This document shows positions 8,825 to 48,258 of a stretch of DNA of 64,000 nt, one piece after another. This stretch comes from a virus, in the IMG/VR virus record IMGVR_UViG_3300025000_002059, positions 23,960 through 87,959 of that record; one strand, 5' to 3'. The notes under the pieces are model-generated. The model had not been told where the DNA came from, made no database searches, and was given only the letters and a program-made list of their open reading frames with translations. Position numbers and translations under genes: made by a program. Position 1 is the first letter of the stretch, and every line of letters begins with the position of its first letter.

Positions 8825-8868
8825 TTTTTTATTTCCCTCGCTTTTTGTTTTTTCTTGACCACATGTGT

Positions 8869-8908
8869 ATATTAACTCTAAAACATGATTATTGCAATAC
8901 ATATATCA
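8869..8908 (-). promoter_or_regulatory. Early promoter P3
   Basis: TTGCAA (8892-8897), 17-bp spacer ending TTTTAGAGT, TAATAT (8869-8874) on the minus strand, then ACACATGTGGTCAAG. Drives the DUF6900-like gene and the gene at 8385. Confidence 0.7.
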
Positions 8909-8969
8909 TGTTAATACTCATCCATATGTTGTCAATCGCAACATGGAGAAAAAGAAAACAAAGAGATAT

Positions 8970-9203: not shown

Positions 9204-9212
9204 TTATATCCC

Positions 9213-9455
9213 TCATTTAAATTTTATAAGATTTTTATCTTTCAAGGCAGAAACGATACGTTCACATTTTTCCTCGGTCGATAAACAGCATTCAAGATAA
9301 ATTCCTATCTTTTGAAACTTCCAAAGATTTGCCCGGATTCGGTCAAGAAATTGATCGAGTGAAGCGAATTGTTCTGGGTCGAATGTGTTCTCCCAATAGG
9401 TTGTCATGATATCTATGGCTGGGGTGCCTTGCTCAAATTCAAGTGTTTCATCCAT
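9213..9455 (-). CDS. Hypothetical protein
   Basis: 80 residues, helical (FDPEQFASLDQFLDRIRANLWKF; STEEKCERIVSALKDKNLI). It is co-transcribed with the HTH gene 9 bp downstream. No family recognised. Confidence 0.55.
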   Translation of the reverse strand: MDETLEFEQGTPAIDIMTTYWENTFDPEQFASLDQFLDRIRANLWKFQKIGIYLECCLSTEEKCERIVSALKDKNLIKFK

Positions 9456-9482
9456 TTCAAAATACCTTCTTTCTACTTCATA

Positions 9483-9512
9483 AGCTTAACATTTTTGTCG
9501 CGTTTGTCAACA
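9483..9512 (-). promoter_or_regulatory. Promoter with TTGACA -35
   Basis: On the minus strand TTGACA (9505-9510) with TAAGCT (9483-9488) 16 bp later. The -35 region GTTGACA repeats half of the operator found at 8353-8367, suggesting shared control. Confidence 0.45.
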
Positions 9513-9535
9513 TGGAAAGAATGGGAAGGGTGAGC

Positions 9536-9561
9536 CAGAAGCCCGCCTAAGCGGGTCTTCT
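9536..9561 (-). terminator. Hairpin at the end of the amidoligase gene
   Basis: AGAAG-CCCGC pairs with GCGGG-CTTCT around CTAA, overlapping the stop codon of the gene. There is little U-tract, so its strength is uncertain. Confidence 0.45.
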
Positions 9562-10431
9562 GCCACTCCGGAAGGAACTATCCCCTTCAAGGTTTTTCAT
9601 CAAGTGGAGCCGCGCTGTGGCGAACTCTGGGCCAATCATCCCTAGACGGAGCAGCCAGCATCTGAATGAATATTTGGCATTTTCAGTTTGGCTTTTGCTG
9701 GCCTTGCTGGACTTTTGGCAGATTGCCTGAGCAGATACTGCGAGACAAAACTGAATATAAGATTTGATTTTTCCAGCATGGAGTGTTGCGTTGAAATAGC
9801 GGAACTCGACAGTCGAAGCATACCAGACATTGTGGAGATTTAGGCCATGATACCGAGTTGAATTATAATGGCCGGATGAATGTGTTCCTTCATACCAGAT
9901 ATTGCCGAGTGTTTCTAGGTCGTTGGGTTTGATTTGATTAATGCCATTTACCAGATTTTGTTCAACTGGCTTACAATAGGAGATTTTACGATTGTAGTTT
10001 ACGCCAAAAGCTTCGAATATGAGGTCTTCTTTTGAGTAGACGATGTTTATAAGATTGCGGAGCGTTTTAGCATTGTGGGCATCTTTGCCAACATGGATAT
10101 GAATTCCGCATGAATTATTTACGACTGCGCCACCTTTGCGAAGGAGACGAACAATTTCTTGTAGGGTTTCGATATCGCCATAGTTCAGGATTGGAGTAAC
10201 TAATTCGCAAGAATAATCCCGGCTGGCTGCTGCGCCACTTTTCAGCATTGTGGCGATTGAGCCATCGGAGACAATTTTCCATGTTCGACCTGAGTTATCG
10301 CGGGCATTCGTTCCCATCGTTCCATTTCCAAAATATTGACCAATTATATTAGCTGCCTGCTGGCGTGTGATTCCGGTAAATTCAATTTCAACTCCAAATG
10401 TTTGATTTTTAATTACTGCTAAATTTTCCAT
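9547..10431 (-). CDS. Amidoligase-family enzyme (COOH-NH2 ligase type)
   Basis: 294 residues from the ATG after GGGAGTGGACATAAAA; the frame upstream to 10515 lies in promoter P4. The FGVEIEFTG motif at residues ~12-20, WKIVSDGS near 50, CELVTPIL near 78 and GIHIHVGKDAHN near 115 are hallmarks of the glutamine-synthetase-fold amidoligase family (Amidoligase_2). These enzymes are predicted to form amide or isopeptide bonds using ATP. In phage and bacterial clusters they commonly occur with a gamma-glutamyl cyclotransferase; one is encoded at 12.67 kb. Substrate unknown; modification of a host or phage protein is plausible. Confidence 0.85.
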   Translation of the reverse strand: MENLAVIKNQTFGVEIEFTGITRQQAANIIGQYFGNGTMGTNARDNSGRTWKIVSDGSIATMLKSGAAASRDYSCELVTPILNYGDIETLQEIVRLLRKGGAVVNNSCGIHIHVGKDAHNAKTLRNLINIVYSKEDLIFEAFGVNYNRKISYCKPVEQNLVNGINQIKPNDLETLGNIWYEGTHSSGHYNSTRYHGLNLHNVWYASTVEFRYFNATLHAGKIKSYIQFCLAVSAQAICQKSSKASKSQTENAKYSFRCWLLRLGMIGPEFATARLHLMKNLEGDSSFRSGRRPA

Positions 10432-10481
10432 TTTTATGTCCACTCCCTGCTGTTTTTTGTTGTGTGCCTTGCCACATCTGT

Positions 10482-10545
10482 ATATTAACTCTAAAACATG
10501 ATTTATGCAATACATAAATCAAAGTAGTGTGCATCCAATTTGTTG
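10482..10545 (-). promoter_or_regulatory. Early promoter P4 with upstream operator-like block
   Basis: TTGCAT (10505-10510), 17 bp, TAATAT (10482-10487) on the minus strand, then ACAGATGTGGCAAGG. Upstream, a 25-bp block around 10521-10545 (containing GCATCCAATTTGTTGCA) is almost identical to one upstream of P5, so it is probably a regulator site. Confidence 0.7.
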
Positions 10546-10551
10546 CAAAAA

Positions 10552-10573
10552 AAGAAGGCTTTTTCAGCCTTCA
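10552..10573 (-). terminator. Rho-independent terminator
   Basis: GAAGGCT pairs with AGCCTTC; on the minus strand the stem is followed by a run of seven T. It ends the transcript of the membrane protein at 10606. Confidence 0.85.
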
Positions 10574-10605
10574 GATGGAATACCCTATTTTGATTTATTT
10601 ATTTT

Positions 10606-11169
10606 CTACAGTGATTCGTAAGCTTTCATTTGAAGATTATATTCAAACTGGACCATCTGGAAGTCATTGTCCCACTTGGAGATTGCCCTGACCAGAGTAT
10701 CATGTTTAACTTTTGAGTCAATCTTGATCCCCTTCAGCGCAACGTAAGCTTTTGTCTGAAGATCAGTTTCAAACTTAATCATCTGGTAGTCAGTACCCCA
10801 TTTTCCTGTTGCGGCACTCTTGATAACAGCTGTAACATTATTTGCATCCATTTCTGATACAGGATTAGTGTATGTCGGGGATGATTCTGCTACTGGGGCC
10901 GGGTCCGGAGCCGGAACTGGAGCCGGAACTGGAGTAGGAGCCGGAACTGGAGTAGGAGCCGGAGTAGGAGCCGGAGCATTGTCTACAACTTTTGTTTCGT
11001 TATTCGGTGTCTTTGTTTCCTGATTTTCATTGGAACCAATCGATATCAAAGTTAGGAGACAAATAAATAATACACCAAGTGCCTGTTTCCTGTTTTTTAT
11101 TTTATAGAATTTACCTCGAATTAAGGATACCATACCAACTATGAATGTTATTACTGCTAAAAATCCCAT
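10606..11169 (-). CDS. Membrane-anchored protein with Pro/Ala linker and repeated C-terminal domain
   Basis: 187 residues. Two N-terminal hydrophobic segments (residues ~2-17 and ~29-45) flank a basic loop (KFYKIKNRKQ). A Thr-Pro-Ala-Pro-Val-Pro linker (~67-93) follows; its DNA is a slippage-prone repeat. The C-terminal half has two copies of a ~30-residue motif (KWGTDYQMIKFETDLQTKAY; KWDNDFQMVQFEYNLQMKAY). Likely an envelope protein whose repeats face outward or inward across a spacer. A superinfection-exclusion role would fit but is not shown. Confidence 0.65.
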   Translation of the reverse strand: MGFLAVITFIVGMVSLIRGKFYKIKNRKQALGVLFICLLTLISIGSNENQETKTPNNETKVVDNAPAPTPAPTPVPAPTPVPAPVPAPDPAPVAESSPTYTNPVSEMDANNVTAVIKSAATGKWGTDYQMIKFETDLQTKAYVALKGIKIDSKVKHDTLVRAISKWDNDFQMVQFEYNLQMKAYESL

Positions 11170-11236
11170 TATTTTTTCCCCCTTAAATTTTTACTCTTTT
11201 ATCTTCCATTATCTTTTCTCATTTTAGCCCACTTTC

Positions 11237-11317
11237 TCAATTACGATACCTATAAATTTCATACGATTCTCCCACGGCATCACACATTTTCTGAAGTTCA
11301 TCCCTTGTGACTTTCAC
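11237..11317 (-). CDS. Possible 26-residue peptide
   Basis: GTG start overlapping the stop of the Cys-rich gene (AAGTGA), giving VKVTRDELQKMCDAVGESYE and a short tail RYRN. Translational coupling is plausible, but the length is marginal. Confidence 0.35.
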   Translation of the reverse strand: MKVTRDELQKMCDAVGESYEIYRYRN

Positions 11318-11472
11318 TTGAAATATCCCTCGTCTTTTATGAAGTCCCGGCAATTGATCCCGCCATACTTTTCCTCTTCGCAAGCAGCGCTGCAGCCGTA
11401 CTGGTATCCCCAGAGACATCCGGAGCACTTCGGGACCAGATGATATTTCTTCGAACTTTTTACCAATTTCAT
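11314..11472 (-). CDS. Small cysteine-rich protein
   Basis: 52 residues read in a frame different from the longest one here: MKLVKSSKKYHLVPKCSGCL, then WGYQYGCSAACEEEKYGGINC and RDFIKDEGYFK. Five cysteines (two CxxC-like sets) point to zinc binding. AAAGGAAATGG precedes the ATG. The longer overlapping frame ending at 11237 lacks any such pattern and is probably spurious in its first two thirds. Confidence 0.55.
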   Translation of the reverse strand: MKLVKSSKKYHLVPKCSGCLWGYQYGCSAACEEEKYGGINCRDFIKDEGYFK

Positions 11473-11561
11473 ATTTACCATTTCCTTTCATAGTTGCCAT
11501 TGTCAACATGTGGGCACAAATATTGAATATTTCAGTTTGTTTTCCCTTCGTCCACATTTAC

Positions 11562-11625
11562 AGTTTAGCTCTAAATAATGAATGTTGCAACACGTTTTTC
11601 ATAGTAGTTTGCATCCAATTTGTTG
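11562..11625 (-). promoter_or_regulatory. Early promoter P5 with upstream operator-like block
   Basis: TTGCAA (11585-11590), 17 bp, TAAACT (11562-11567) on the minus strand, then GTAAATGTGGAC. The block at 11601-11625 repeats that upstream of P4 with one change. Confidence 0.7.
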
Positions 11626-11645
11626 CATTTTGATTCTCAAATTTC

Positions 11646-11834
11646 TCAACCCCACATTCCACATGATGAATTGAATCTTTCCTCGGCTTCCTCTAGTGTT
11701 TCAGCCCCATACTTTCCCCAATAATAACCAATTTCATTCATAGATTCAGCACATACAAGATAAGGGTAATTACCTTCTACTTGGAATATATATTTTTTGC
11801 ATTTTCCCTCGACTTCTTCTTTAATTATTTTCAT
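11646..11834 (-). CDS. Hypothetical protein
   Basis: 62 residues from the ATG (MKIIKEEVEGKCKKYIFQVE) that follows AGAAAGGTGG; a GTG four codons earlier overlaps the ribosome site. The C-terminal ETLEEAEERFNSS helix and two cysteines are visible. No family recognised. Last gene of the P6 transcript. Confidence 0.55.
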   Translation of the reverse strand: MKIIKEEVEGKCKKYIFQVEGNYPYLVCAESMNEIGYYWGKYGAETLEEAEERFNSSCGMWG

Positions 11835-11854
11835 CTTATTTTCCACCTTTCTAA

Positions 11855-12067
11855 TTAAAACAAATTTTGATGTTCTTTAAGGATGGCATTCATTTCTGAC
11901 TTGATCTTGAATAATTTTATTTCGTTGGCATTGAAGGAAGCAACGTCCCCAGAATATCTAGCCATGAATCCTTTGAGTGAGGGTTTCGCGCTGCCCATTT
12001 CCTTTTTGTAGCTTTTGCCAACCAAGGCCCTATATTTTGCGATTCTTTCTAAATCGAATTTATCCAT
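11855..12067 (-). CDS. Hypothetical helical protein
   Basis: 70 residues from MDKFDLERIAKYRALVGKSY, preceded by a perfect GGAGG; an earlier in-frame ATG at 12142 lies inside the next gene. It contains GFMARYSGDVASFNANEIKL and ends KEHQNLF. Function unknown. Confidence 0.6.
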   Translation of the reverse strand: MDKFDLERIAKYRALVGKSYKKEMGSAKPSLKGFMARYSGDVASFNANEIKLFKIKSEMNAILKEHQNLF

Positions 12068-12069
12068 TT

Positions 12070-12237
12070 TTACATTTCCTCCTTTACTTCTTCGCAAGAA
12101 ATTATTTTGTAACCAGAAGATCCAGCGCATGGCTTTCTGCAAATGAAACCAACTTCAAACTTGACTGATGTTGTTTCGGTGTAGAGTTTTCCCTTAAGGG
12201 TTCCACTTGTAAATTCTCTCGTTACGATATATTTCAT
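12070..12237 (-). CDS. Hypothetical protein with beta-barrel pattern
   Basis: 55 residues from MKYIVTREFTSGTLKGKLY, preceded by AAAGGTGG. The pattern of short strands ending YKIISCEEVKEEM resembles small SH3-like phage proteins. The start at 12282 proposed by the longest frame would lie between P6 and the ribosome site. Confidence 0.6.
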   Translation of the reverse strand: MKYIVTREFTSGTLKGKLYTETTSVKFEVGFICRKPCAGSSGYKIISCEEVKEEM

Positions 12238-12288
12238 TTTTTTATTTACCACCTTTGCGTTTTTTTGTTTTCCCTTGTCCACATCTGT

Positions 12289-12328
12289 ATATTAACATTA
12301 TTATATGAATTACGCAATACATTATTCA
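12289..12328 (-). promoter_or_regulatory. Early promoter P6
   Basis: TTGCGT (12312-12317), 17 bp, TAATAT (12289-12294) on the minus strand, then ACAGATGTGGACAAGGG. This copy shows the GGACAA box in full. Confidence 0.7.
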
Positions 12329-12400
12329 ATAATAATAAGACTTAAATTCTTCCATATAAAAAGGGTCTTTTGTAATTTATTGTTGGTTAAGTGACAACTA

Positions 12401-12431
12401 AAAGAACCCGTTGATCTACATTCAACGGGTT
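12401..12431 (-). terminator. Rho-independent terminator
   Basis: AACCCGTTGA pairs with TCAACGGGTT around a 7-nt loop; on the minus strand CTTTTAG follows. It ends the P7 transcript after the gene at 12466. Confidence 0.75.
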
Positions 12432-12465
12432 AAATACATAAAATCCTTAAGTGAGAAACTAAAAA

Positions 12466-12672
12466 TTATTGTTTTGTCCGATTATTGATTCTGTTTAAAT
12501 GTTTTTCATGTAAGCCATTTCCAAAACCATTATTCTCATCTTTCCAAGTGTACCAGAACCCATGTTCAGTATTTTTTATCCCCATAATAACATGTGTTGT
12601 TACGTGACCTCCTGCCCAATTAGCATTCACAGTTTCTCCAATTTTATATTTTGCCGTTTTATTATTATCCAT
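12466..12672 (-). CDS. Hypothetical small protein (SH3-like pattern)
   Basis: 68 residues: KYKIGETVNANWAGGHVTTHVIMGI suggests a small beta-barrel (SH3/KOW-like), followed by EHGFWYTWKDENNGFG. Its start overlaps the GGCT stop. No family recognised. Confidence 0.55.
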   Translation of the reverse strand: MDNNKTAKYKIGETVNANWAGGHVTTHVIMGIKNTEHGFWYTWKDENNGFGNGLHEKHLNRINNRTKQ

Positions 12673-13180
12673 TTACTTTCTCTCCTTCACGTTCCCAAGC
12701 TTGGAACCAAGAATTTATGGATCGCTCGGAAGCGCCAACACAAAGCAGCGTTTCCTTCAAGCCATCGAGACGGATACCAAAATCTTTATAGCCTTGGACA
12801 ATGGAGTTTAAGTAGCTGGCACCGATCGGATCCACCTTCATCCCTTTCTTTACAATCCAGTAGGTTATAGCTCGCCGGGCATGACCATTCTCGTCAACGA
12901 CTTCCACGATTCCCCGGTCATAAAGTCGCGGGTAGCCTTCATACTTATCAAGCGCCTTCAGGCATTCCGGTGTGATTAACCAAAGCCCACCTTCCACGCC
13001 AAGAGTAGCGGAACCTTGCTCCGGGAAGATAGTAGCTACTCCACCAAGGAAGCCAAGCTCGGCACCTCCTAGCGAAGCTGAACAGAGTTTCCTTGCAGCC
13101 GGGCAGCGCTTCTTCATTTGAGCGACATTAAGGTTTGATCCATAACTAAAGTAAAGCATATTATCTTTGGATATTTTCAT
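12665..13180 (-). CDS. Gamma-glutamyl cyclotransferase-like (AIG2/GGCT) protein
   Basis: 171 residues. LYFSYGSNLNVAQMKKRCP is the diagnostic YGSNL substrate-binding loop, followed by the GLWLITPECLKALDKYEGYP region containing the catalytic Glu (in the KYEG turn). GGCT-fold enzymes release 5-oxoproline from gamma-glutamyl amides or open isopeptide links. Within the same promoter family as the amidoligase, it could reverse or edit the amide bonds that enzyme forms (inference). Length is normal for the family. Confidence 0.85.
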   Translation of the reverse strand: MKISKDNMLYFSYGSNLNVAQMKKRCPAARKLCSASLGGAELGFLGGVATIFPEQGSATLGVEGGLWLITPECLKALDKYEGYPRLYDRGIVEVVDENGHARRAITYWIVKKGMKVDPIGASYLNSIVQGYKDFGIRLDGLKETLLCVGASERSINSWFQAWEREGEKVNG

Positions 13181-13203
13181 TTTTATTTACCAACTTTCTT
13201 AAT

Positions 13204-13458
13204 TTATATTTCCTGAATCCAATCCATATCATCGAAGCTTGTGAATCCGCCAGCCTTTAGGATTTCCTGCAGCGCCTTTTTCCCGCCAACTGGGATATAA
13301 GGAATGAAGGTTTCGTCGCTTTCAAATTTAAGATAGCCCAGTCTTGGAACAAAGAATGCAAAGCCTTTTGAGATTTCAGTGTATCCTCCCGGACAAGTAA
13401 ACTTTTTGCCTTTCACGTTGACTATTTGGATTGTATTTTTAATTTCTGCTGTTGTCAT
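13204..13458 (-). CDS. Hypothetical protein
   Basis: 84 residues from the ATG (MTTAEIKNTIQIVNVKGKKF) after AAAGGTGG. GFAFFVPRLGYLKFESDETFIP and GGKKALQEILKAGGF are visible; the fold looks alpha/beta. First gene after P7. Function unknown. Confidence 0.6.
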   Translation of the reverse strand: MTTAEIKNTIQIVNVKGKKFTCPGGYTEISKGFAFFVPRLGYLKFESDETFIPYIPVGGKKALQEILKAGGFTSFDDMDWIQEI

Positions 13459-13503
13459 TTTCAATTTCCACCTTTCAGCTTGTTTTCCCCTTGCCACATT
13501 TAC

Positions 13504-13542
13504 AGTTTAACTCTGAATGATGATTATTGCAATACATATATC
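13504..13542 (-). promoter_or_regulatory. Early promoter P7
   Basis: TTGCAA (13527-13532), 17 bp, TAAACT (13504-13509) on the minus strand, then GTAAATGTGGCAAGG. It diverges from the rightward promoter at 13570. Confidence 0.7.
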
Positions 13543-13569
13543 AAATAAAATATTATCCAATTATGAACA

Positions 13570-17246: not shown

Positions 17247-17542
17247 TGCTAGTTAATGGAACTCCGGCTATTGCAGATATTAAGAGTCAGTGTTCAATTA
17301 TTCCCGGATTTGAATTTAACTACATCGCTTACAAGGGGAAAGTATTGTGGAGCACGGTATCGGCATCGCTTGATGATTATTTCATTTATCTTTATGACGG
17401 ACCAAATTATAAAAATGGGTGGGATCCATATACGGTAGCCTGCGTAGATGAACACGGTGATCTGTTTTACTACGGTCGCTGGACGAAATTAAAAAATGCA
17501 CTTGCATGGCTTGCGGATCCAAACATGCCAGAAAGGGACTAA
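17243..17542 (+). CDS. Hypothetical protein
   Basis: 99 residues: SIIPGFEFNYIAYKGKVLWS, DDYFIYLYDGPNYKNGWDPY, CVDEHGDLFYYGRWTKLKNALAWL. The start overlaps the XRE gene stop (ATGATG). No family recognised. Conserved-looking aromatic residues suggest a real small folded protein. Confidence 0.6.
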   Translation: MMLVNGTPAIADIKSQCSIIPGFEFNYIAYKGKVLWSTVSASLDDYFIYLYDGPNYKNGWDPYTVACVDEHGDLFYYGRWTKLKNALAWLADPNMPERD

Positions 17543-17547
17543 AGCAA

Positions 17548-18309
17548 TTGGAGACACTAGCGGTAATAAACCAAAAGGGCGGCGTAGCCAAAACTACAAC
17601 GAGCGTGAATATGGCGGCCATAATAGCCGCCATGGGATTCAAGACATTACTTATTGATGTGGATCCGCAAGCTAATCTTTCCCAATCCTTGGGCATTGTT
17701 GCCTTTGATATGGGAACACCTAATCTTTTCGAGGATCCGAAAATAACACTTAGCAAGTGCGTTAATGAAACAAGCATAACGAAATTATCCATTATTCCAT
17801 CGGACCTATCACTAGCACAAGTTGAATGGGAACTTTTGAAAACATTTAAAGGCACCAATACTTCTATTCTGCGAGACAAGATCAAGGCAAGTGAGGAAGA
17901 ATTTGATTATTGCATTATCGACTGCCCGCCAAGCTTAGGAATTTTCAGCCTTAATGCGCTCATTGCAGCGGACCGTGTGCTTATCCCGGTTGGTCTTGAT
18001 CCGTTCGGATTGATTGGAATAAAGTATCTAGTGAGCACGATCACTGATATCAGAATGAGTATAAACAAGCATCTCAAAATTCTGGGCATTGCACGGACCA
18101 TGTGGGATATGCGGCAGAGACTTGGACGAGAAATCAGCGAAAGTATGGAAAAGGATTATCCGGGAAAAGTCCTTGAGACGATTATAAAAATGAATGTAAG
18201 CGTCAAGGAAAGTGCTGTTGCCCAAATGCCACTGGTCATTTATGAGCCAAATGCTCCGGCTGCGCTGCAATACATTCAATTAACGAATGAAGTGTTACAG
18301 AGATGGTGA
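17548..18309 (+). CDS. parA: ParA-type partition ATPase
   Basis: 253 residues from a TTG preceded by AAAGGG; an upstream ATG at 17506 lies inside the previous gene. LAVINQKGGVAKTTTSVNMA is the deviant Walker A with signature lysine, LLIDVDPQANLS is Walker A', and YCIIDCPPSLGIFSLNAL is Walker B. These ATPases position DNA by forming ATP-dependent gradients on the nucleoid, driven by a centromere-binding partner. The RHH gene overlapping its 3' end is the likely partner. This indicates an extrachromosomal state at some stage. Confidence 0.92.
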   Translation: METLAVINQKGGVAKTTTSVNMAAIIAAMGFKTLLIDVDPQANLSQSLGIVAFDMGTPNLFEDPKITLSKCVNETSITKLSIIPSDLSLAQVEWELLKTFKGTNTSILRDKIKASEEEFDYCIIDCPPSLGIFSLNALIAADRVLIPVGLDPFGLIGIKYLVSTITDIRMSINKHLKILGIARTMWDMRQRLGREISESMEKDYPGKVLETIIKMNVSVKESAVAQMPLVIYEPNAPAALQYIQLTNEVLQRW

Positions 18310-18590: not shown

Positions 18591-19349
18591 ATGATTGAAG
18601 AAATAGATGACCAAATATTTACCATGACAAGTGATCTCTCGGATGAAGAACTGGTCGATTTTGCAGCTGGGATATTTAAGAGCAATTGGAAAACATCATA
18701 CGATTACCAGAAAACGGATCCTATTATATTTCAAAGCTTGCCGATCGATGGGAAAATACTTAAGCATACCGATTTTTTGTCTTCGGCTGTTTATATATCA
18801 GAACTAACACAAAAGGCATTATCCTATAGATGGAATGAGATAGGAGGTCTAGCCGGGAAAGAACTGAAGGAGTGGGATGCCAATGGCGGCCTTTGTATTT
18901 ATCTATCCATTTTGCATTTTTGTTTACTGCTGGAAAGCAAAGCCGTAAAAGAGAATGAACTATGCTTAGTCCAAGGATTTTATAGGCATCCAACACACGG
19001 AATACTCAGTATATTCTCAAATCTGGGAACTCAATGCGGAGTTCATGCCTTTATAAGCGTTCAGGGAGCGGTTGTTGATTTTTCGATACAGCAAGAAGCA
19101 TCAACGTTCGAATTTGGAGAAAAAGAATTCATTATTGGCGATATCCCAGATGAGATGGAGATGGTCGGCTGGACAGAAGGAAAGCATTTAGTCAAGCAAT
19201 ATGCGCGTGAGATAGCCCGGAGCAGCGGACTTAATTATTTTGAATGGATTGAACAGCACAAAATCAATTCATATAAACTTGCAAGCAAAGAACTTAACAA
19301 AGAGCTTGTAAGGCTTAAAAGATTATATAAAAGTTTGGAGGATGAATGA
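18591..19349 (+). CDS. Hypothetical protein with possible Cys-His-Asp arrangement
   Basis: 252 residues. The central part has GGLCIYLSILHFCLLL (Cys at the start of a helix), QGFYRHPTHG, then CGVHAFISVQGAVVDFSIQQ, an order (Cys, His, Asp) seen in papain/transglutaminase-like folds. The match is only a pattern, so enzymatic activity is not claimed. The C-terminus is helical (KINSYKLASKELNKELVRLK). It is co-transcribed with partition genes. Confidence 0.55.
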   Translation: MIEEIDDQIFTMTSDLSDEELVDFAAGIFKSNWKTSYDYQKTDPIIFQSLPIDGKILKHTDFLSSAVYISELTQKALSYRWNEIGGLAGKELKEWDANGGLCIYLSILHFCLLLESKAVKENELCLVQGFYRHPTHGILSIFSNLGTQCGVHAFISVQGAVVDFSIQQEASTFEFGEKEFIIGDIPDEMEMVGWTEGKHLVKQYAREIARSSGLNYFEWIEQHKINSYKLASKELNKELVRLKRLYKSLEDE

Positions 19350-19352
19350 GCG

Positions 19353-20408
19353 ATGGCTAGGAAAAAGAATGAAGAAGAAGTCACCCTAACCAATCAGGAA
19401 ATGATTCAAAAAGAAGAGCGCCATAGAAAAGATTTAGAAAATAAACTAAAGGCATCGGAAGCATCAGCGGAAGATCAGAAACAATTTACTCCCTTGGTCA
19501 AACTTACTAAGGATTTAAGAAGCGCAAGCCGGACATTGAATCCACAAGAAGCCCGGTATCTAGTGGACAGGTACTACCAAATCCAACAATACCGGACCAG
19601 CGCCAAGAATCAGATTAGAGCATCGGAAAGCGAAGAACCAAATGAAGTTATTGTCTGGTTTGCAGAGAACTTTGAGGAACTGGAGAAGAACATAAAAAAG
19701 GCGCTGGATGCTTATACGAGTAGTCATCCGGTCGGAGCTTGGGCCAAATCGGTGATCGGCGTAGGTCCGACATTCGCAGCCGGGCTTCTAGCGCACATTG
19801 ATGCGAAGAAAGCACCAACAGCCGGAGCCGTGTGGAGTTACGCAGGATATAATCCAAGTGTTGAATGGTTAAAAGGTCAGAAGCGTCCATGGAATGCTGA
19901 TTTAAAAAAACTATGTTATCTCATAGGTGAATCATTTGTAAAGGTTTCCAATAATCCTAAAGATATCTATGGTAAATTATATCGCCAAAGAAAAGATCAG
20001 GAGATAGCGAAGAATATAGCGGGAGAATTTGCGGAACAAGCAATATCAAAGCTGGAGAAATTCAAGATAGGTAAAGATACTGATGCTTACATATGGTATG
20101 CAGGATGTCTGACTGAAGATAAAGCCAGAGCAATTCTTCTGGGTGAAAAATCCGGATCAGCCAAAAGTCTAGCGGGAGAAAAGGATTCTGGGATTCGTAT
20201 GCTTCCACCAGCACATATCAACGAGCGGTCCAAGCGATATGCTGTTAAAATATTCCTAGCCCATTTTCATGAGGTCTTATTTGAATATGAATTTGGGACC
20301 AAGCCACCAAATCCATATGCTATCTCAATCCTGGGACATGCACATAAGCTGGAAGTTCCAAACTATGAAGTATTTAAAAAAGCGATGGAAGAAGATCCGT
20401 CACTATAG
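19353..20408 (+). CDS. Protein with IS110-type Transposase_20 (HhH) domain, no DEDD nuclease
   Basis: 351 residues. Residues ~130-195 match the C-terminal Transposase_20 domain of IS110/IS116 transposases: VIGVGPTFAAGLLAHID, GAVWSYAGYNPSVEWLKG and DLKKLCYLIGESFVKV. The N-terminus is charged helix (KEERHRKDLENKLKASEASA) instead of the RuvC-like DEDD domain, and the serine expected in a catalytic Tnp domain is not evident. The C-terminus has KRYAVKIFLAHFHEVLFEYE and PYAISILGHAHKLEVPNY, a pattern seen in phage homologues. It is probably a DNA- or RNA-binding protein. Array 1 begins about 30 bp after its stop. Confidence 0.75.
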   Translation: MARKKNEEEVTLTNQEMIQKEERHRKDLENKLKASEASAEDQKQFTPLVKLTKDLRSASRTLNPQEARYLVDRYYQIQQYRTSAKNQIRASESEEPNEVIVWFAENFEELEKNIKKALDAYTSSHPVGAWAKSVIGVGPTFAAGLLAHIDAKKAPTAGAVWSYAGYNPSVEWLKGQKRPWNADLKKLCYLIGESFVKVSNNPKDIYGKLYRQRKDQEIAKNIAGEFAEQAISKLEKFKIGKDTDAYIWYAGCLTEDKARAILLGEKSGSAKSLAGEKDSGIRMLPPAHINERSKRYAVKIFLAHFHEVLFEYEFGTKPPNPYAISILGHAHKLEVPNYEVFKKAMEEDPSL

Positions 20409-20439
20409 CCAAGTTACTTTGATTTTAAACAAAGCCATT

Positions 20440-21148
20440 GAGCGAACCATCAGACAAGAGAGTATCAACAATAGAAGAGTGAGCCAACAAGCGTGAGCTA
20501 ATTGCATCCCATAAAAGCGAGCCACTAACCATGAATTATGCAACGAAAGAAAGCGAGCCATAGCAACAGATTACCCCATCTCGACGAGAGCGAGCCAATG
20601 GTCTATGAAAGCAGAATTGACCATCAAACAAGAGTGAACCGTGTGCAAAGATTGTATCAATTAGGAGAAGTGAGTCATTAGATTAGAATAGCACCATATC
20701 CGCAAAGCGAGCCGTTAGATCAGAAATTTATTTTATTCATTCCCATTGAGTGAGCCAAGAGCCAAGGTATACGAAAGCACCAACAACAACGAGCGAGTCA
20801 TCCGATATGAAATTAGATACAAATGCGTTGAGCGATCCAAAATGAATTGTAGCGAAACAAAGCGAACCATGGGTATGGAGAAATACCATTTATCTCCGAG
20901 TGAACCAAAAAATTAGAATAAATCGCCAAAGTAGAGTGAGCCATATGAAATAGATTAAATCACACTCTAAGAGCGAGCCAAGCTAACTTAATATAAAATG
21001 AACGAACCAGAATGCTTGATTGGGACAAAAATAACGAGTGAGCCACTAAAGGGAATTATAATATTTAATCAAAAAATGCAATGAGCGAAACAAAATATTT
21101 TGATCGAACCATTATAAAGGAGATATTCCGGGGATAACGAGTGAGTCA
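20440..21148 (+). repeat. Array 1a: 36-bp repeats with 10-bp RARYGARYCA motif
   Basis: Motif ends fall at 20449, 20486, 20524, 20560, 20597, 20641, 20677 and 20714, so spacing is 36-38 with one 44. Halfway (18 bp) lies a weaker motif, such as GAGAGTATCA ending 20467, GATTGTATCA ending 20659 and ATAGCACCA ending 20695. The intervening 8-bp segments are not conserved. All units point right. Stops occur in all frames over the stretch. About 20 units by length. Confidence 0.9.
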
Positions 21149-21151
21149 TGC

Positions 21152-21444
21152 AGGAAAGCGTGATGGGATGTTGGCTTAGAAGCAGCCATGGCTGGAAGGC
21201 TGATTGCTTTATGCAATCCATCTAAGGAGTGGGGCGATGGCTATTTGTGACTTGATTGTTTTTCCACATTATTAGCAATCTGAACCCGATGAGGGAAAAT
21301 GAATGTGGTAGTGTTACGATGATACCGATGCATTTGTAGTGACAAGGTAACATAAAAGCTGCAAATGAAGGAAAGCGTATAGCTTGGGAGTTGCTTTAGA
21401 GTTACACTTGGTTATCCCTTTTGGCGTAATAGCACACCATCACA
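21152..21444 (+). ncRNA. Structured RNA module resembling the 23S rRNA GTPase-associated centre
   Basis: From 21166, 24 bases are identical to bacterial 23S rRNA helix 43; they start GGATGTTGGCTTAGAAGCAG and end CCAT. TGGCT (21172-21176) pairs with AGCCA (21184-21188) around the TAGAAGC loop that holds A1067 in E. coli. GCGTAATAGC at 21424-21433 equals the helix 44 loop (A1095). GTGATGG (21160-21166) pairs with CCATCAC (21437-21443) to close the element. The ~230-nt insert has CCACATT/AATGTGG, GATTGC/GCAATC and CATTTGTAG/CTGCAAATG stems, and TGTTAC/GTAACA crosses the last as a pseudoknot. A second, imperfect helix 44 copy (GAAAGCGTATAGCT) is at 21371-21384. No protein is encoded. Confidence 0.7.
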
Positions 21445-22304
21445 TGAGTCATGCGGAATGATTGAACGAAATAGTGAGTGAACCATCAATAATGACCGGA
21501 ACATTGTGTCAGAGTGAGCCACGATATAAGAATAGCAACATTAATAGTTGGAGCGAACCAATCAAGCCGAAAATTAACATTCCCTATGAGTGAGTCAGGT
21601 ATATTTATGAAAAATATGAACGAGTCGAAGGAAGTAAGGGTACCAATCTCATAGAGCGAGCCATAAGGAATAATGGCAACATCACAGGAAAGCGAACCAC
21701 TAATAGCGAGTTACATCATTATACGAGAGTGAACCGTCAGAAGCGAAACTAAGTATCATATATTCAGAGTGAATCGGGATATTGGAGAGCACCACACATA
21801 CTGAGTGAATCAGGACTATGGAAAGCAGCAGATAAGCCGAGTGAGCCGAATAATGGGATAGCACCACGCTGGTTAAGCGAGCCATTGAAGGAAATAGGAT
21901 CAGAAATGCAGAGCGAGCCGCAGGATGTAAAAGCACAATAAAAAGAGAGCGAGCCAGACCAACCGAAAGCAGTATTGAGCGAGAGCGAGCCAGAGGAAAA
22001 AGATTAATTCATTGCAGGACAACGAGCCATAACTACAGATTAACGACAAGATTATAAGAGCGAACCAAAATCACGCTTAAATAAAATTGAAACATTAGCG
22101 AGTGAGTCATAGGACTTGATTGAATCACCCCATCGGAGCGATCCATATTAAGCGAGAATAACCAGCGTAGGTTGAGTGAGCCAAATGGAAGCGAGAGTAC
22201 CAATTGCATAGAGTGAGCCAGAACTGGTGATTAAAATCATTAATGCGAGAGCGAACCATGGCAAGAGAGGACCACAAATATAGAGTGATTCAAAAGCGAG
22301 GAAT
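21445..22304 (+). repeat. Array 1b: continuation of 36-bp repeats
   Basis: Same motif and orientation as array 1a, about 24 units by length (for example GAGTGAGCCA near 21515 and AAGCGAACCA near 21690). Half-unit motifs such as GATAGCACCA and GAGAGCACCA remain visible at 18 bp. It runs into the ribosome site of the embedded gene at 22310. Confidence 0.9.
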
Positions 22305-22309
22305 TATCG

Positions 22310-22594
22310 ATGAGAGATTTAATCAGTTATGATGAGATGCTAGAAAACAAGGATAAGCTAAAAACCATATTCCTCGATTTCAAGGCACGGTATTATGCTT
22401 TGGGCAAGAAGCAGAATGGAAAATTTAAAACGAGTGATCTTGACCGATTAATCCGGGAGACGATCGCAGAATTAAAAGGCAAAGAAAAACTTATTGCCGA
22501 AGGATTTCTGGAATTCGTGCTGGGATTTTTATTCAACAGCTCGTGGGATTCTACGAAGGCTTTTAATTCTGTAGATAAAATGTTTAACTGGTAG
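22310..22594 (+). CDS. Hypothetical protein embedded in array 1
   Basis: 94 residues: SYDEMLENKDKLKTIFLDFK, KTSDLDRLIRETIAELKGKE and GFLEFVLGFLFNSSW. Composition and a GCGAGGA ribosome site support a real gene; that site is also a remnant of the array motif. The array stops before it and resumes about 35 bp after it. No family recognised. Confidence 0.6.
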   Translation: MRDLISYDEMLENKDKLKTIFLDFKARYYALGKKQNGKFKTSDLDRLIRETIAELKGKEKLIAEGFLEFVLGFLFNSSWDSTKAFNSVDKMFNW

Positions 22595-22629
22595 ATAAAT
22601 TTAGCCAAAACAGATGATAGTATCACGGC

Positions 22630-23030
22630 ATCCAAGCGAACCATTGACTATCGCCGGAAAGCGAGCCAATTCACACGACTAAAAACAAGATACTGAAGCG
22701 AACCAGAGGAAAAGACTATTTCATTACAGGAAAGTGAGCCGGACCAATTGATAAATACATTAAATGAGAGTGAGCCACGGTTAGGGACAATTTCAATTAT
22801 TAGAAGCGAGTCAAACAGATAAGATTTCCATTTAAAGAGAGCGATCCATTTCAGATGACAGTAACAGCCTTTACGAGTGAGCCAGAAAATAGGATAGCAT
22901 CATTATGCGAAAGCGAGCCAAGTGCATGAAGATATAAACCATTAAACGAGATCGAACCAGTAGACAAGGAAAGTATCATGATCATAAAGTGAGCCAAACA
23001 CCATGATTAGTAACATTATGGACAAGCGGA
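22630..23030 (+). repeat. Array 1c: 36-bp repeats
   Basis: About 11 units. Well-formed examples: GAGTGAGCCA then GATAGCATCA 18 bp later then AAGCGAGCCA 18 bp later (around 22875-22920). Same orientation. Confidence 0.88.
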
Positions 23031-23057
23031 CTAATACACCCTTGGGAGGTGGAACGA

Positions 23058-23495
23058 TTGGACCACGAAATATCATACCCAGAAAAGAAATGTCCCGGAT
23101 GCGGAAATGATAATCTACTGGATGGACCGCGAGGTGGACTATCTCAAAATGTCTTATGCCCGGAATGCCAAAGAGAATGGAACTATGGACCATTTGGGTA
23201 TGAAGAAATCAGCCCGGCACGAACATACTTATACCGAGTTGTGTCTCCAAAACTTGATCTGCGGATCATCCCAGTAGGATGCAAGCCGGGATGCTGTGGG
23301 GAAACATATCCATGCATTGATGAGGTAGCCATGATTATAGAACAGGGCAATCTTGCCTTTATGATTCACGGCGAGCACGTTAAGGAGCAGTTAGAGAAAC
23401 TAGAATACAGAATTGATGTAACGAGTCATAACAACATACCGATTGGAATGTATATATCTGAAAAGGGATCAAAAAGCGTGTACGAAAGATTTTAG
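23058..23495 (+). CDS. Zinc-ribbon protein embedded in array 1
   Basis: 145 residues from a TTG five bases after GGGAGGTGG. An N-terminal zinc ribbon has CPGCGNDNLL near residue 12 and CPECQREWNYG near 34. A second Cys cluster, GCKPGCCGETYPC, is near residue 77. The C-terminal half is alpha/beta (VAMIIEQGNLAFMIHGEHV). Likely nucleic-acid or protein binding. Its placement inside the array suggests a functional link but does not prove one. Confidence 0.65.
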   Translation: MDHEISYPEKKCPGCGNDNLLDGPRGGLSQNVLCPECQREWNYGPFGYEEISPARTYLYRVVSPKLDLRIIPVGCKPGCCGETYPCIDEVAMIIEQGNLAFMIHGEHVKEQLEKLEYRIDVTSHNNIPIGMYISEKGSKSVYERF

Positions 23496-23514
23496 CCAGC
23501 ACATGAGAAAATCC

Positions 23515-23745
23515 AGAGATCGTGAGCGAATCAATTGATGAAAAAAGCAACATTACTCCGGAGTGAACCGATTGAAATGATGATCCATTGACCAAGAGTG
23601 AGCCAATATCTATGAGCCACCCAATTTAAAGTAGCGAGCCATCCCAAAGGATTTTTCAATTCCACGGAAGCGAGCCATTATAAGGCGATATTTCAGTCCA
23701 CGGGAGCGATCCAATTCACCAGTCTAATATTTCTTGGAGTGAAAA
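23515..23745 (+). repeat. Array 1d: 36-bp repeats
   Basis: About six units (GAGTGAACCG, GAGTGAGCCA, AAGCGAGCCA, GAGCGATCCA). Half motifs include ATATTTCAGT-type variants. It ends at the ribosome site of the next gene. Confidence 0.85.
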
Positions 23746-23752
23746 TATTTTT

Positions 23753-24127
23753 ATGGATAGACTGCGAAATGAGCGAAAGGCCAACGGTTTATGTGCTCAA
23801 TGTGGAACTAAACTTGATAGGATTGGGAGATATTGCAAAAAATGCAATACTTCAGGGAATATTAATAAGCACAAACGTTGCCTAAAGCTTTATGCAATCG
23901 GTTTATGTACTACTTGCGCTGAGCCATTAGACAGAGATGGTTGGTTTTGCTCAAGGTGTGCAAACAACTTAAAACTTAGGGCAAGAGTTAGAGACACAGA
24001 AAGAAGATTAAAAGGATTATGCGTTCAGTGTGGCGCTTGGGCAGATGGGTATTCCTATTGCCAACGCTGCAGGGATATGAGGATGGAGAGATATCACTCA
24101 AAGAAAAGGTCCATTCACCAAGAGTGA
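23753..24127 (+). CDS. Triple zinc-ribbon protein embedded in array 1
   Basis: 124 residues made of three tandem Cys4 units: GLCAQCGTKLDRIGRYCKKC, GLCTTCAEPLDRDGWFCSRC and GLCVQCGAWADGYSYCQRC, joined by basic linkers (NKHKRCLKL; RARVRDTERRLK). The whole protein is strongly basic, suggesting nucleic-acid binding. GGAGTGA, an array-motif derivative, serves as ribosome site. Its repeated binding units would suit a repeated target, such as the array around it (inference). Confidence 0.7.
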   Translation: MDRLRNERKANGLCAQCGTKLDRIGRYCKKCNTSGNINKHKRCLKLYAIGLCTTCAEPLDRDGWFCSRCANNLKLRARVRDTERRLKGLCVQCGAWADGYSYCQRCRDMRMERYHSKKRSIHQE

Positions 24128-24355
24128 GTGAGCCAATATTGGATTTTTACATTAGAGAAAGAGCGAATCAAACAGATATTATTTTTCAGATACCAAGAGT
24201 GAGCCAATTATGATGACAGAAACAACCCAAGAAAGCGAGTCAATGAATACGAACTTTATCAACAGATATGAAGCGAGCCATAACAATGAAGTATAACCAT
24301 CATCCAAGAGCGAGCCTAAGCAATTGATCACCCCACACTCACTGAGCGATTGAAG
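24120..24355 (+). repeat. Array 1e: last part of array 1
   Basis: About six units (GAGTGAGCCA, GAGCGAATCA, GAGTGAGCCA, AAGCGAGTCA, AAGCGAGCCA, GAGCGAGCCT), overlapping the 3' end of the triple zinc-ribbon gene. The repeats fade before the ribosome site of the next gene. Confidence 0.85.
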
Positions 24356-24367
24356 GAGTAAAATAAA

Positions 24368-24496
24368 ATGGATGCCCTACTATTCCTGATGGCTTTAGGG
24401 AATTTCATAGCATTTCATAGAGCAATGAACGAGCGCGAACTTAACCTTACATATTTATTTTCAGCTCTAGTATTCTTCATGCTACTTATAATTTAA
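24368..24496 (+). CDS. Small membrane protein
   Basis: 42 residues: MDALLFLMALGNFIAFHRAM, a short charged turn NERELN, then LTYLFSALVFFMLLII. Two hydrophobic segments form a hairpin-type small membrane protein. GAAGGAG precedes the ATG. Function unknown. Confidence 0.55.
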   Translation: MDALLFLMALGNFIAFHRAMNERELNLTYLFSALVFFMLLII

Positions 24497-24510
24497 GGAG
24501 GTGATGATAC

Positions 24511-33823: not shown

Positions 33824-34030
33824 ATGGCTTTGACACTTTGGTCCGGCAGAGGAACATGGGAAGGCTGGAAAATACGGAAGCAATATCAAGGCTGCAAATT
33901 TGGAGAGTCCGTCCTTGTGGATCCCGATGGAGTGCCATACAGTCCCAGCGATATACTAGCGAGCAGAAATTCTGCAAATCTTTCTGAAAAAGAGAAAATT
34001 AATAAAAGCAATAAATCGATAAAGGAATAA
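33824..34030 (+). CDS. Hypothetical protein
   Basis: 68 residues: MALTLWSGRGTWEGWKIRKQ, KFGESVLVDPDGVPYSPSDI and a basic, low-complexity tail (EKEKINKSNKSIKE) that runs into the octamer repeats. The first ~50 residues look genuine. Function unknown. Confidence 0.55.
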   Translation: MALTLWSGRGTWEGWKIRKQYQGCKFGESVLVDPDGVPYSPSDILASRNSANLSEKEKINKSNKSIKE

Positions 34031-34460
34031 ATCCATAAATCCATATAAGAATATATCGATACATCCATAAAGGAATATTTGCTGAAGATTCTATTTAATA
34101 GACAGAATGAAAGAATTGGATTTTGTTTATAAGTTTAGGATTTTATGTAAATATTCCATTTTTTAGTGATTGCGTATCGATATCCATATATCAATATATC
34201 CATATATCCATACGGAGCATAATTATCGTAAGAATCAATTCCTGATCGCGACGAGTAGCCTAACATTTTCTGTCAAATTGTCTAAGAGTGTATTCCTATC
34301 CATATATCAATACATCCATATATCAATACAAGAGGGACTTATGGACCAAATATGTAATTTAATGGATTCTTTCAAATTGTAGGCAAACAGAATATTCTCA
34401 AATCTATACATCAATAAATCCATATTTCCATAAATCAATATATCGATAAATCAATACAGA
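34014..34460 (+). repeat. AT-rich octamer repeat region (possible origin or AT-rich unwinding element)
   Basis: Four clusters (about 34014-34075, 34178-34217, 34298-34340, 34400-34460) consist of variants of ATATCCAT/AAATCAAT in an 8-bp period, for example ATCCATATATCAATACATCC. Between the clusters the sequence is AT-rich without genes. Such iterons plus the following dyads suggest an origin, unwinding region or regulator target. Confidence 0.65.
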
Positions 34461-34810: not shown

Positions 34811-36970
34811 AAGCGAGCCAAGAATAGAGATTTTACAGAATTTTGAGCGAGTCAACTAGGTAGATTTTTTCAAATGTCCAAAGCGAACCAAAGCGCTTGA
34901 GAGCGCCAAAATTGGCAAGTGAACCATCAGTAGCAATAGTGCCAAACTATCAGAGTGAGCCAAAGTATTTGAGTTAAAATCATAAAAAGGTAAGTGAGTC
35001 ATCGAACCAGATTATAAACATTGAAGAATAGCGAACCATTTTTGATTAAGAGAGTGAGTCAAAGTTTCCGATCGTACCTAAGTAAGGGAGCGAGTCCAAA
35101 GGTTTTTCAGTGTACCAGAAAGAGGGAGCGAGTCATACCAAACAGAAAAAAGAACGAACCACGAACATAGACTTATTCATTTTACGAGAGTGAGCTAATA
35201 ATGCCGATAGCAACAAAAACAGTGAACGAGCCAAGAATACTGAGAGTACCATATTTCGAGAGCGAGCCAGTAAGATGGGTATTTCCAAAAAAGAGAAGCG
35301 AGCCAAGAACTCTGATATCCCAGACCAAGCAAGCGAGTCAAGGTTTCCGACCATACCCAAACGTAAGGGATCGAGTCAAGGTTTCCGAGTGCACCGAAAT
35401 TAGGGATCGAGACATGATAGCTGATTTAATCGTAAATAATGATCGTTTCAATCCACGCACCAGAAATGAGGTGCGACAATAAATATAAGTGAGCCAGCTG
35501 CATTGAGATTACCAATGTAGAGAAGCGAACCAACGAATGTGATTAGTTTACAATTGAAGAGTGAACCACACGATAAGATGTCACCGTATGTTTGGAGTGA
35601 GCCAAAGAATTAAAAAAACATTATATGCAAGCGAACCAAAAACCTTAGACAATATCAAACCCCAAGAGTGAGTCAAGCTTTCCGAGAGGTCCAGAACGGA
35701 TGAACGAATCATGTTTCGTGAGAGCACCAGAAACATGGAGTGAGCCAAGAACACTGAGATACCAATTGCGAGAGAGCGAGCCAATAACTACGATCGATCA
35801 CTGAAAAGAAGCGAACCAGTGTTGCTGGATTTGAGCAAAGTCTCTGAGTGAGTCATGGAGACAGGATAAGATCCAAATATGTCATGACTTTCTATTAGTC
35901 GTGTGGGATTGAAACATAGCTGCTAAACGAGCCAAAATATAGAATAGCAACATTAATAGTGGAGCGAACCATGGCGAATGATAATGACAATTTCCATTGA
36001 GTGAACCATTAGGAATGAGAGAACCAGTTAAATGAGTGAACCATGTATCGTGAAAAATTTCAAGCGTTACGAGTGAGCCAACAGAGTTAATCATTACAAT
36101 TGTTCAGAGCGAATCATTAAACTTGATTGTATCAGAGGTTAGAAGTGAATCAATGGGACGGAGAGTACCACAAACCATTAGTGAGCCATTCAATCGGAGA
36201 GCACCGTAAAGAACGAATCATAAGCGGCGAAAGAATCAGAACCTCGAAGTGAACCATGTATTGTGATATTTCATAATCTGTGAAGTGAGCCATCATTAGG
36301 GATTGTTTCAATTATTAGGAGTGAACCACTTTTTGTGAGAAACACAGCGATATAAGGGTGAGCCAAGAACACCGACAGTCAACAAAGCCACAAAGCGAAC
36401 CAATGTTGGAGAGAGCACCGTGCCATTCGAGTGAACCGATGTCGCACCATTTTTAAACAGAGCGAGCCAATGACGATGGAGAGCACCATGATCACGGAGC
36501 GAACCACCATTAGGGATAGTAACATATTTTTGGAGTGAGCCGAGGATACTGACATTTAAACCAGATGGAAAGAGTGAGCCAAAGTATCCGAATACAACAA
36601 CCTTCTAGAGCGAGTCACCCCACAAGAGCACACCCATGTCCGTTAAGCGATCCATCAAGGCATAGAGCACCATCAAGCATGAGTGAATCGACATTCGTGA
36701 GATACCCAATACTTGTGAGTGAGCCAGCATATCTGAATATTTCAATAGTCGTGAGTGAGCCACTGCCGCAAGATAATACCATGTCCATAGAGCGATCCAC
36801 TACGCAAGATAGCACCACAACTGTAGAGTGAACCATCGGGGAGAATTAATCATCGGTTAGAAGTGAGTCATTAAACTTGATAGCACCATATCCGCAAATC
36901 GAGCCAATCATGCTGAATATTTCAATGAGCCAGAGTGATCCAATTATTTAGATCGAATCAATAAATCTGA
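34811..36970 (+). repeat. Array 2: 36-bp repeats with RARYGARYCA motif
   Basis: About 60 units in one orientation. Measured motif ends 35197, 35233, 35269, 35305, 35340, 35378 and 35414 give spacings 36, 36, 36, 35, 38 and 36. A half-unit motif lies 18 bp from each (GAGAGTACCA ends 35251, midway between 35233 and 35269). The second half of each unit often reads TGAGAGNACCA or ATATTTCA. All frames contain stops; short open stretches with SEP or ARS every 12 residues are by-products of the period. Confidence 0.92.
35415..35486 (+). other. Non-repeat insert with GC hairpin inside array 2
   Basis: Here the array is interrupted: the next motif end comes 82 bp after the previous one. The insert contains CGCACC pairing with GGTGCG around an 8-nt loop (about 35456-35475). 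It may be a processing site, a small insertion or a decayed unit. Confidence 0.4.
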
Positions 36971-47898: not shown

Positions 47899-47927
47899 TC
47901 AACCGAGCTGAGAGCACCATGAGAAGC

Positions 47928-48226
47928 GAACGAACCATGGAACAAGAAAAAAGCGTTATGTAGAAGTGAGCCAAATTTAAAGAGTGTACCAATGAACATG
48001 AACGAACCAAAAGGTCGGACTGAAACAATTCAAAAGAGTGAGCTATCTTGAATGGATTGAGACATTGAATGGGAGCGAACCAAAATCATTAAAAAATCAT
48101 GTTTAGTGAGTGAGCCAAACGAATGGAGAGCACCGCATTATAAGAGCGAACCATATAGATGGAGAATCCCAAATAGCAAGAAGTGAGCCAATACTCCTGA
48201 GAGTACCACATTCCGAGAGCGAGCCA
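47928..48226 (+). repeat. Array 3: 36-bp repeats
   Basis: Nine units. Motif ends 47937, 47973, 48009, 48045, 48082, 48117, 48153, 48190 and 48226, spacings 36, 36, 36, 37, 35, 36, 37 and 36. A half motif, GAGTACCA, ends at 48208, exactly midway between the last two. Same orientation as arrays 1 and 2. It fills the gap between the dehydratase and the next ParB-methyltransferase. Confidence 0.93.
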
Positions 48227-48258
48227 TGACGATGAGATAAACATTAGAAGGTGAGCGT

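What the first reader, a model, noticed from the sequence alone, without database searches (positions are those of the whole stretch)
19353..20470. IS110-type Transposase_20 domain protein without nuclease domain lies directly beside array 1
IS110 elements are guided by a structured bridge RNA. Here a protein with only the Transposase_20 helix-hairpin-helix part, lacking the DEDD domain and an evident catalytic serine, ends 32 bp before the array. A non-cutting derivative that binds a repeated nucleic acid would be a new use of this fold.
Basis: partly seen in the sequence, partly recalled or inferred. Interest (0 to 1): 0.72.

Follow-up and report, generated by a model that had tools for sequence, protein, structure and literature searches.

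The report
Phage TIGR-TasA guide system
The protein beside the repeat array is a TasA, the nuclease-free member of the TIGR-Tas family of RNA-guided DNA-binding systems described in 2025, and comparison of five related phages suggests that its guide sequences are preserved by selection although what they aim at is still unknown.

Summary
In detail: a 351-aa protein with a weak Transposase_20 match and no nuclease domain ends 31 nt before a long repeat array. It is not new in kind. It is a TasA of the TIGR-Tas family (Faure et al. 2025, PMC12045711): NCBIfam TIGR_Tas_endo 191.5 bits (cut-off 100); best folds TasH and TasR, ahead of IS110. The array is a dual-repeat TIGR array of 36-nt units (10-nt edge, 8-nt spacer A, 10-nt loop, 8-nt spacer B); its edge repeat equals that of the published Salicola SpTIGR. 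This genome adds: at least 81 units in three places; edge bases that covary between neighbouring repeats where a processed guide would close; a ParA-small protein-TasA order kept in five phages; and spacer pairs conserved across phages only ~70% identical in DNA while the loop between them drifts, so the guides look selected. No targets were found in these phages, in E. coli rRNA, or for two single guides tried against IMG/VR and 398 genomes. In passing, the array holds an RNA that copies the ribosomal GTPase-associated centre and recurs in 29 other viral contigs outside Rfam; that is probably the more novel find.

The parts
17506..18309 (+). ParA-type partition ATPase, first gene of the conserved operon
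   Evidence: PF13614 E 1.5e-50; phrog_164 ParA-like 2.5e-60; kept in 5 of 5 phages, 58-70% identity
18303..18584 (+). 93-aa protein, possibly a ribbon-helix-helix centromere binder (my reading)
   Evidence: 39-47% identity in 4 relatives; helix-helix C-terminus in a low-confidence model, pLDDT 61; no convincing family hit
18591..19349 (+). 252-aa protein of unknown family; in the operon in 4 of 5 phages, elsewhere and on the other strand in G003
19353..20408 (+). TasA: solo Nop-domain TIGR-Tas protein
   Evidence: NCBIfam NF052498 1.8e-56; PDB TasR 9mty 1.4e-12, TasH 21kl 7.1e-8; fold Z 17.9 TasH, 16.6 TasR, 12.1 IS621
20440..21149 (+). TIGR array 1, first block
21160..21443 (+). Structured RNA that copies the 23S rRNA GTPase-associated centre (h42/h43/h44) with an insert of about 236 nt; lies inside array 1
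21476..22299 (+). TIGR array 1, second block
22635..22997 (+). TIGR array 1, third block, after a 94-aa ORF (22310-22594)
23524..23714 (+). TIGR array 1, fourth block
24123..24318 (+). TIGR array 1, fifth block
34811..36961 (+). TIGR array 2, far from tasA (37 or more units)
47925..48227 (+). TIGR array 3, far from tasA (7 or more units)
34005..34457 (.). AT-rich 8-bp iterons (ATCMATAW) in separate clusters; candidate centromere for the ParA operon (inferred)

Best explanation
This is a TIGR-TasA system carried by a phage with plasmid-type partition genes. The arrays are transcribed on the plus strand and cut within the edge repeats into 36-nt tigRNAs (inferred here from covariation; shown for relatives by Faure et al.). 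A TasA dimer binds edge and loop repeats, and spacers A and B (8 nt each) pair with opposite strands of one ~16-bp DNA site (inferred from TasR/TasH). With no nuclease, TasA occupies and probably bends the site, blocking transcription or replication (inferred). Array 1 and the two distant arrays carry the same repeats, so one TasA should serve all of them. About 40% of guides recur in related phages with spacers better kept than the loop between them, so they appear selected for targets that persist outside these phage genomes, most likely in the host chromosome or in co-resident mobile elements.
For: Family: NCBIfam NF052498 TIGR_Tas_endo E 1.8e-56, 191.5 bits against cut-off 100; sequence match to solved TasR and TasH (profile 1.8e-22 and 2.7e-12); the ten best Foldseek hits are all TasH or TasR. 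Array: 10-8-10-8 unit, period 36; edge identical to Salicola CGphi29 SpTIGR AAGCGAGCCA. RNA unit: edge base 7 pairs with base 4 of the NEXT edge in 95.4% of 392 units (75.9% expected), strict Watson-Crick 89.0% against 49.6% permuted (max 56.9%), while the same two positions within one edge stay at expectation, 75.3% against 73.8%. Selection: 32 of 77 G000 guides have a counterpart with 3 or fewer of 16 mismatches in another phage, against 3.6 permuted (max 7); where spacer A is identical between phages (42 unit pairs), spacer B differs at 0.11 per site but the loop interior at 0.34.
Against: No target was found: A.rc(B) sites in the own genome are not clearly above permuted pairs, nor in the four relatives. 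Two conserved guides hit only scattered sites, in IMG/VR and in 398 genomes (20 hits, 8 for the reversed pattern). The host is unknown. There are no transcript data. Related guides might partly reflect exchange between phages, although the diverged loops argue against recent copying.
Confidence: 0.85

Rival explanations
1. Role as host-gene control: the conserved guides silence a fixed set of host genes, like a CRISPR-interference programme carried by the phage.
For: Guides kept across phages while the loop drifts; no self or sibling targets; TasA has no nuclease.
Against: Host genome unknown; two single-guide scans gave no shared gene.
Confidence: 0.45
2. Role in competition between mobile elements: guides bind rival phages or plasmids and block them without cutting.
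For: Faure et al. propose this for TasA by analogy with type IV CRISPR; own genome is not targeted.
Against: No excess of sites in four sibling phages; one conserved guide hit only scattered viral contigs; guides this conserved would be unusual for an arms race.
Confidence: 0.25
3. Role in partition: TasA ties the phage-plasmid to guided sites as part of the ParA operon.
For: ParA, 93-aa protein and TasA lie in the same order in 5 of 5 phages; Faure et al. report tasA operons with parB-like genes.
Against: Iterons at 34005-34457 already offer a conventional centromere (inferred); no self sites found; a shared operon does not show a shared function.
Confidence: 0.12
4. The guides act on RNA, as in archaeal box C/D RNPs, for example on ribosomal RNA.
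For: Same Nop fold family; a ribosome-like RNA lies inside the array.
Against: 755 spacers match E. coli rRNA no more than shuffled spacers (sense 40 against 46.9, antisense 36 against 37.7); TasR had no activity on RNA.
Confidence: 0.08
5. One reading: a non-cutting IS110 derivative that binds the repeats themselves.
For: Weak Transposase_20 match, adjacency.
Against: TIGR-Tas model and folds fit far better than IS110; covariation across units shows that the array works as RNA units with variable spacers.
Confidence: 0.02

Closest known systems
TIGR-TasA (Faure et al. 2025, PMC12045711)
   Same: Solo Nop-domain protein, dual-repeat array beside it, 36-nt unit, repeats ending in a CCA-type box C, phage home, operons with partition genes reported.
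   Different: At least 81 units in three separate places (paper: most often 5 to 15 units, upstream or downstream of the gene); conserved ParA-93aa-TasA order; guide conservation across phages measured here; a structured RNA inside the array.
TIGR-TasH, Salicola phage CGphi29 (SpTIGR)
   Same: Identical edge repeat AAGCGAGCCA, 8-nt spacers, period 36.
   Different: SpTasH has an HNH nuclease; this protein has none.
IS110/IS621 RNA-guided transposase
   Same: Shared RNA-binding fold, Z 12.1; NCBIfam IS110 model hit at 27.7 bits, below its cut-off of 140.
   Different: No DEDD domain; an array of guides instead of one bridge RNA.

Membership tests
TIGR-Tas | Tas-type Nop-domain protein | tested here: met
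   NF052498 191.5 bits, cut-off 100; fold Z 17.9 TasH, 16.6 TasR
TIGR-Tas | Adjacent dual-repeat array with two alternating 8-12-nt repeats and short spacers | tested here: met
   10-nt edge, 8-nt A, 10-nt loop, 8-nt B; first unit 31 nt from the gene
TIGR-Tas | Matching box-like ends of both repeats, with an extra edge pair supported by covariation between neighbouring edge repeats | tested here: met
   Both repeats end YCA and start RA/GA (the TasR arrays in the paper start UG); cross-edge pairing 95.4% against 75.9% expected
TIGR-Tas | Array processed into 36-nt RNAs that bind the Tas protein | not testable with these tools
   Needs small-RNA sequencing and pull-down
TIGR-Tas | Spacers A and B pair with opposite strands of one DNA target | tested here: inconclusive
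   No native target found
TIGR-TasA subtype | No nuclease domain fused to the Nop domain | tested here: met
   No nuclease family; the N-terminal 60 residues are one helix and a disordered stretch in the model
IS110 transposase | N-terminal DEDD RuvC-like domain | tested here: not met
IS110 transposase | Score above the IS110 model cut-off | tested here: not met
   27.7 bits against 140

The most novel reading that the evidence does not exclude
The phages carry a fixed, selected programme of dozens of dual guides with which a nuclease-free TasA binds conserved host-chromosome sites and controls host genes (or tethers the phage-plasmid). It would be a TIGR system whose natural guide targets could be defined by comparing related genomes.
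Probability: 0.35. Interest if true: 0.8.

Novelty: new member of a known kind. Interest (0 to 1): 0.45.

Why it matters
The discoverers of TIGR-Tas state that genuine spacer targets, the role of TasA and the origin of spacers are open. A group of five related phage genomes in which roughly 40% of guides are shared and better kept than their loops says that the guides are functional and narrows where targets can be: apparently not in the phages themselves. The shared guides are a ready list to test once a host is known.

Tried and rejected
Self-targeting: A.rc(B), rc(B).A, A.B and B.A with gaps 0-4 in the own genome and 0-2 in siblings. A.rc(B) in the own genome gave 17 sites with one mismatch against 8 and 13 in two permutations; not persuasive. 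Exact hits in siblings were 3 (rc(B).A) and 4 (A.B) against 0-1 in permutations; these geometries are not the published one and were not followed. rRNA targeting: no excess. IMG/VR scan of one conserved guide: 29 hits; the only shared neighbourhoods among them were identical duplicates. 398 genomes with another guide: 20 hits against 8 for the reversed pattern, scattered over three gap lengths. Both are single-guide trials and exclude little.

Host: TerL, portal and ParA best matches point to no one group; TasA has no plasmid match.

Homologues without an array: L009 (no edge cluster; periodicity flat in the two flanks tested) and mycobacteriophage Arlo gene 69 (only the 331-nt gap upstream was tested). 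A phylum search with the TasA profile gave 55 of 398 genomes; apart from G010 the E-values are 3e-8 or weaker and most frames are 300-500 aa, which fits IS110 transposases; not examined further.

The 93-aa protein as ribbon-helix-helix is my reading of the sequence; the model is too weak to decide. Promoter and terminator scans of 20380-24500 gave nothing above shuffles.

Full report
Observation. The ORF at 19353-20408 encodes 351 aa. Pfam sees only a sub-threshold Transposase_20 stretch (17.6 bits, cut-off 21.3). The first array repeat begins at 20440, 31 nt after the stop codon. The window is part of an IMG/VR virus record of 87,959 bases (window = 23960-87959) with terminase and portal genes.

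What the array is. Edge-like repeats lie in blocks 20440-21149, 21476-22299, 22635-22997, 23524-23714, 24123-24318, 34811-36961 and 47925-48227, all on the plus strand. Units exactly 36 nt long give this layout: edge RAGYGARYCA (10), spacer A (8), loop GANWRNAYCA (10), spacer B (8). Chance does not produce it: 57 edge pairs 36 nt apart in the window, 0 in each of 30 Markov shuffles. The parser finds 81 full units in this genome; this is a lower bound, since the clusters hold 148 edge matches. This is the TIGR array of Faure et al. 2025 (PMC12045711; read here: outline, the first two of twelve parts of the text, sections 8, 9, 10, 44 and 49, and found passages). The edge repeat is the same as in Salicola phage CGphi29, their SpTIGR (AAGCGAGCCA, period 36).

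What the protein is. NCBIfam release 20 has a TIGR-Tas model, and the protein scores 191.5 bits against a cut-off of 100. Sequence search of the PDB returns TasR 9mty (1.4e-12) and TasH 21kl (7.1e-8). An AlphaFold model from ten homologues (pLDDT 79) matches TasH at Z 17.9 over 211 residues, TasR at 16.6 and IS621 at 12.1; the ten best Foldseek hits are all TasH or TasR. No nuclease domain is present, which makes it TasA. Of ten homologues fetched from contigs (nine viral, one MAG contig), nine have array-like repeats beside the gene: eight viral loci by edge scan (weak in L006, stronger in its whole record) and L013 by its 36-nt periodicity. L009 has none. Among named phages, CGphi29 has one and Arlo showed none in the one gap tested.

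Evidence that the array works as RNA units. Over 392 units of five related phages, base 7 of an edge covaries with base 4 of the next edge (mutual information 0.643, z about 116): A-T 213, G-C 134, G-T 25 of 392, 95.4% paired against 75.9% expected; strict pairs 89.0% against a permuted mean of 49.6%, maximum 56.9% in 2000. Within a single edge the same positions are at expectation (75.3% against 73.8%). This is the kind of inter-edge pair that Faure et al. saw in the TasR structure, and it says that the unit runs from the middle of one edge to the middle of the next. The count treats related units as independent.

Evidence that the guides are selected. The five phages share mostly about 65-80% DNA identity in aligned stretches. 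Yet 32 of 77 usable G000 guides have a counterpart within 3 of 16 mismatches in another phage (permuted mean 3.6, maximum 7); 35 of 79, 36 of 81, 22 of 53 and 30 of 75 in the others (units with a spacer under 8 nt left out). To avoid circularity I picked cross-phage unit pairs with spacer A identical (42 pairs) and looked at the rest: spacer B differs at 0.11 per site, the loop interior at 0.34; in 33 pairs spacer B is better kept than the loop, in 6 worse. With spacer B identical (57 pairs), spacer A differs at 0.20 and the loop at 0.33 (38 against 16). One guide pair, GAGGAAAA/TTACAGGA with small variants, is in all five phages, and one set occurs with A and B swapped, which would address the same site from the other strand (8 swapped matches, all of one family; permuted 0-3).

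Targets. None found: see Tried and rejected. The published rule (A pairs one strand, B the other, small gaps allowed) was the main geometry; the order A then rc(B) is my deduction from the 3' overhangs they describe.

Operon. ParA, a 93-aa protein and TasA keep their order in 5 of 5 phages; the 252-aa gene between them is elsewhere, on the other strand, in G003. TasA is the best conserved of them (77-79% against 58-70% for ParA). 8-bp AT-rich iterons at 34005-34457 could be the centromere (inferred). Faure et al. report tasA next to parB-like genes, so this is a related arrangement.

Literature. Searches for 'tigRNA' (5 papers), 'TasA' with 'TIGR array' and 'spacer' (1) and 'TIGR-Tas' (19) in the held library show no report of natural TIGR targets in the listed titles and abstract starts; only PMC12045711 was opened.

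An unexpected RNA inside array 1. Between units, 21160-21443 reads GTGATGG-GATGTTGGCTTAGAAGCAGCCAT...TTTTGGCGTAATAGCACA-CCATCAC. The two halves match the 23S rRNA GTPase-associated centre (GGCTTAGAAGCAGCC starts at E. coli 23S 1062), with an insert of about 236 nt where h44 would close. It is 91% and 80% identical in G002 and G003, also between their array blocks, and was not found in G001 and G004 at up to 2 mismatches in the probe. Exact-pattern scans of IMG/VR found the same arrangement in 29 distinct contigs, two of them G002 and G003. In the 29 records that could be parsed (this one and 28 of the 29; L040 is cut off at its end), the closing helix averages 7.1 pairs against 3.8 when 3' sides are permuted (maximum 4.7), and flanks show no 16S or 23S match. 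One of them, L118, has a closing stem spelled as in E. coli 23S and may be something else. tRNA genes lie in 16 of the 27 fetched stretches scanned. Rfam 15 has no family on the window, nor at these places on the 23 of 29 other loci scanned. Literature searches for it returned nothing relevant in their listings. Its likely partner is ribosomal protein L11 (recalled: the isolated fragment of this region binds L11); its function is unknown. It is reported as noticed in passing because nothing ties it to TasA beyond position.

Verdict. A real, well-supported TIGR-TasA system: known kind, unusually rich example, with comparative evidence for guide selection that the searches did not show in print.

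Noticed in passing
window 21160-21443; also G002 (L042), G003 (L043), L040, L041, L044-L053, L105-L119: Phage RNA that copies the 23S rRNA GTPase-associated centre (h42/h43/h44) with a 75-239-nt insert, in this record and 29 other viral contigs, often near tRNA genes, in no Rfam family where scanned; closing helix 7.1 pairs against 3.8 permuted.
   Followed up: partly
window 34005-34457: AT-rich 8-bp iterons (ATCMATAW) in separate clusters; candidate partition site or origin.
   Followed up: partly
window 46915-59373: Run of sugar genes that reads like nonulosonic acid (sialic or pseudaminic type) synthesis: two NeuB-like, aminotransferases, nucleotidyl transferase; my reading of the ORFs, no family search made.
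   Followed up: no
L013 1340-1960: TIGR array upstream of a tasA on a contig of a Eubacterium MAG; genes downstream look tail-like by my reading.
   Followed up: partly
G000 1-6300 and 81600-87959 (record coordinates): Both ends of the record align to the same stretches of its relatives, so it probably has a terminal repeat of about 6 kb and a genome of about 81.6 kb.
   Followed up: no
window 8842-13559: Five copies of an about 83-nt element (D2), four of them 65-77% like the reference, spread over 4.7 kb; maybe shared leaders of minus-strand genes.
   Followed up: no
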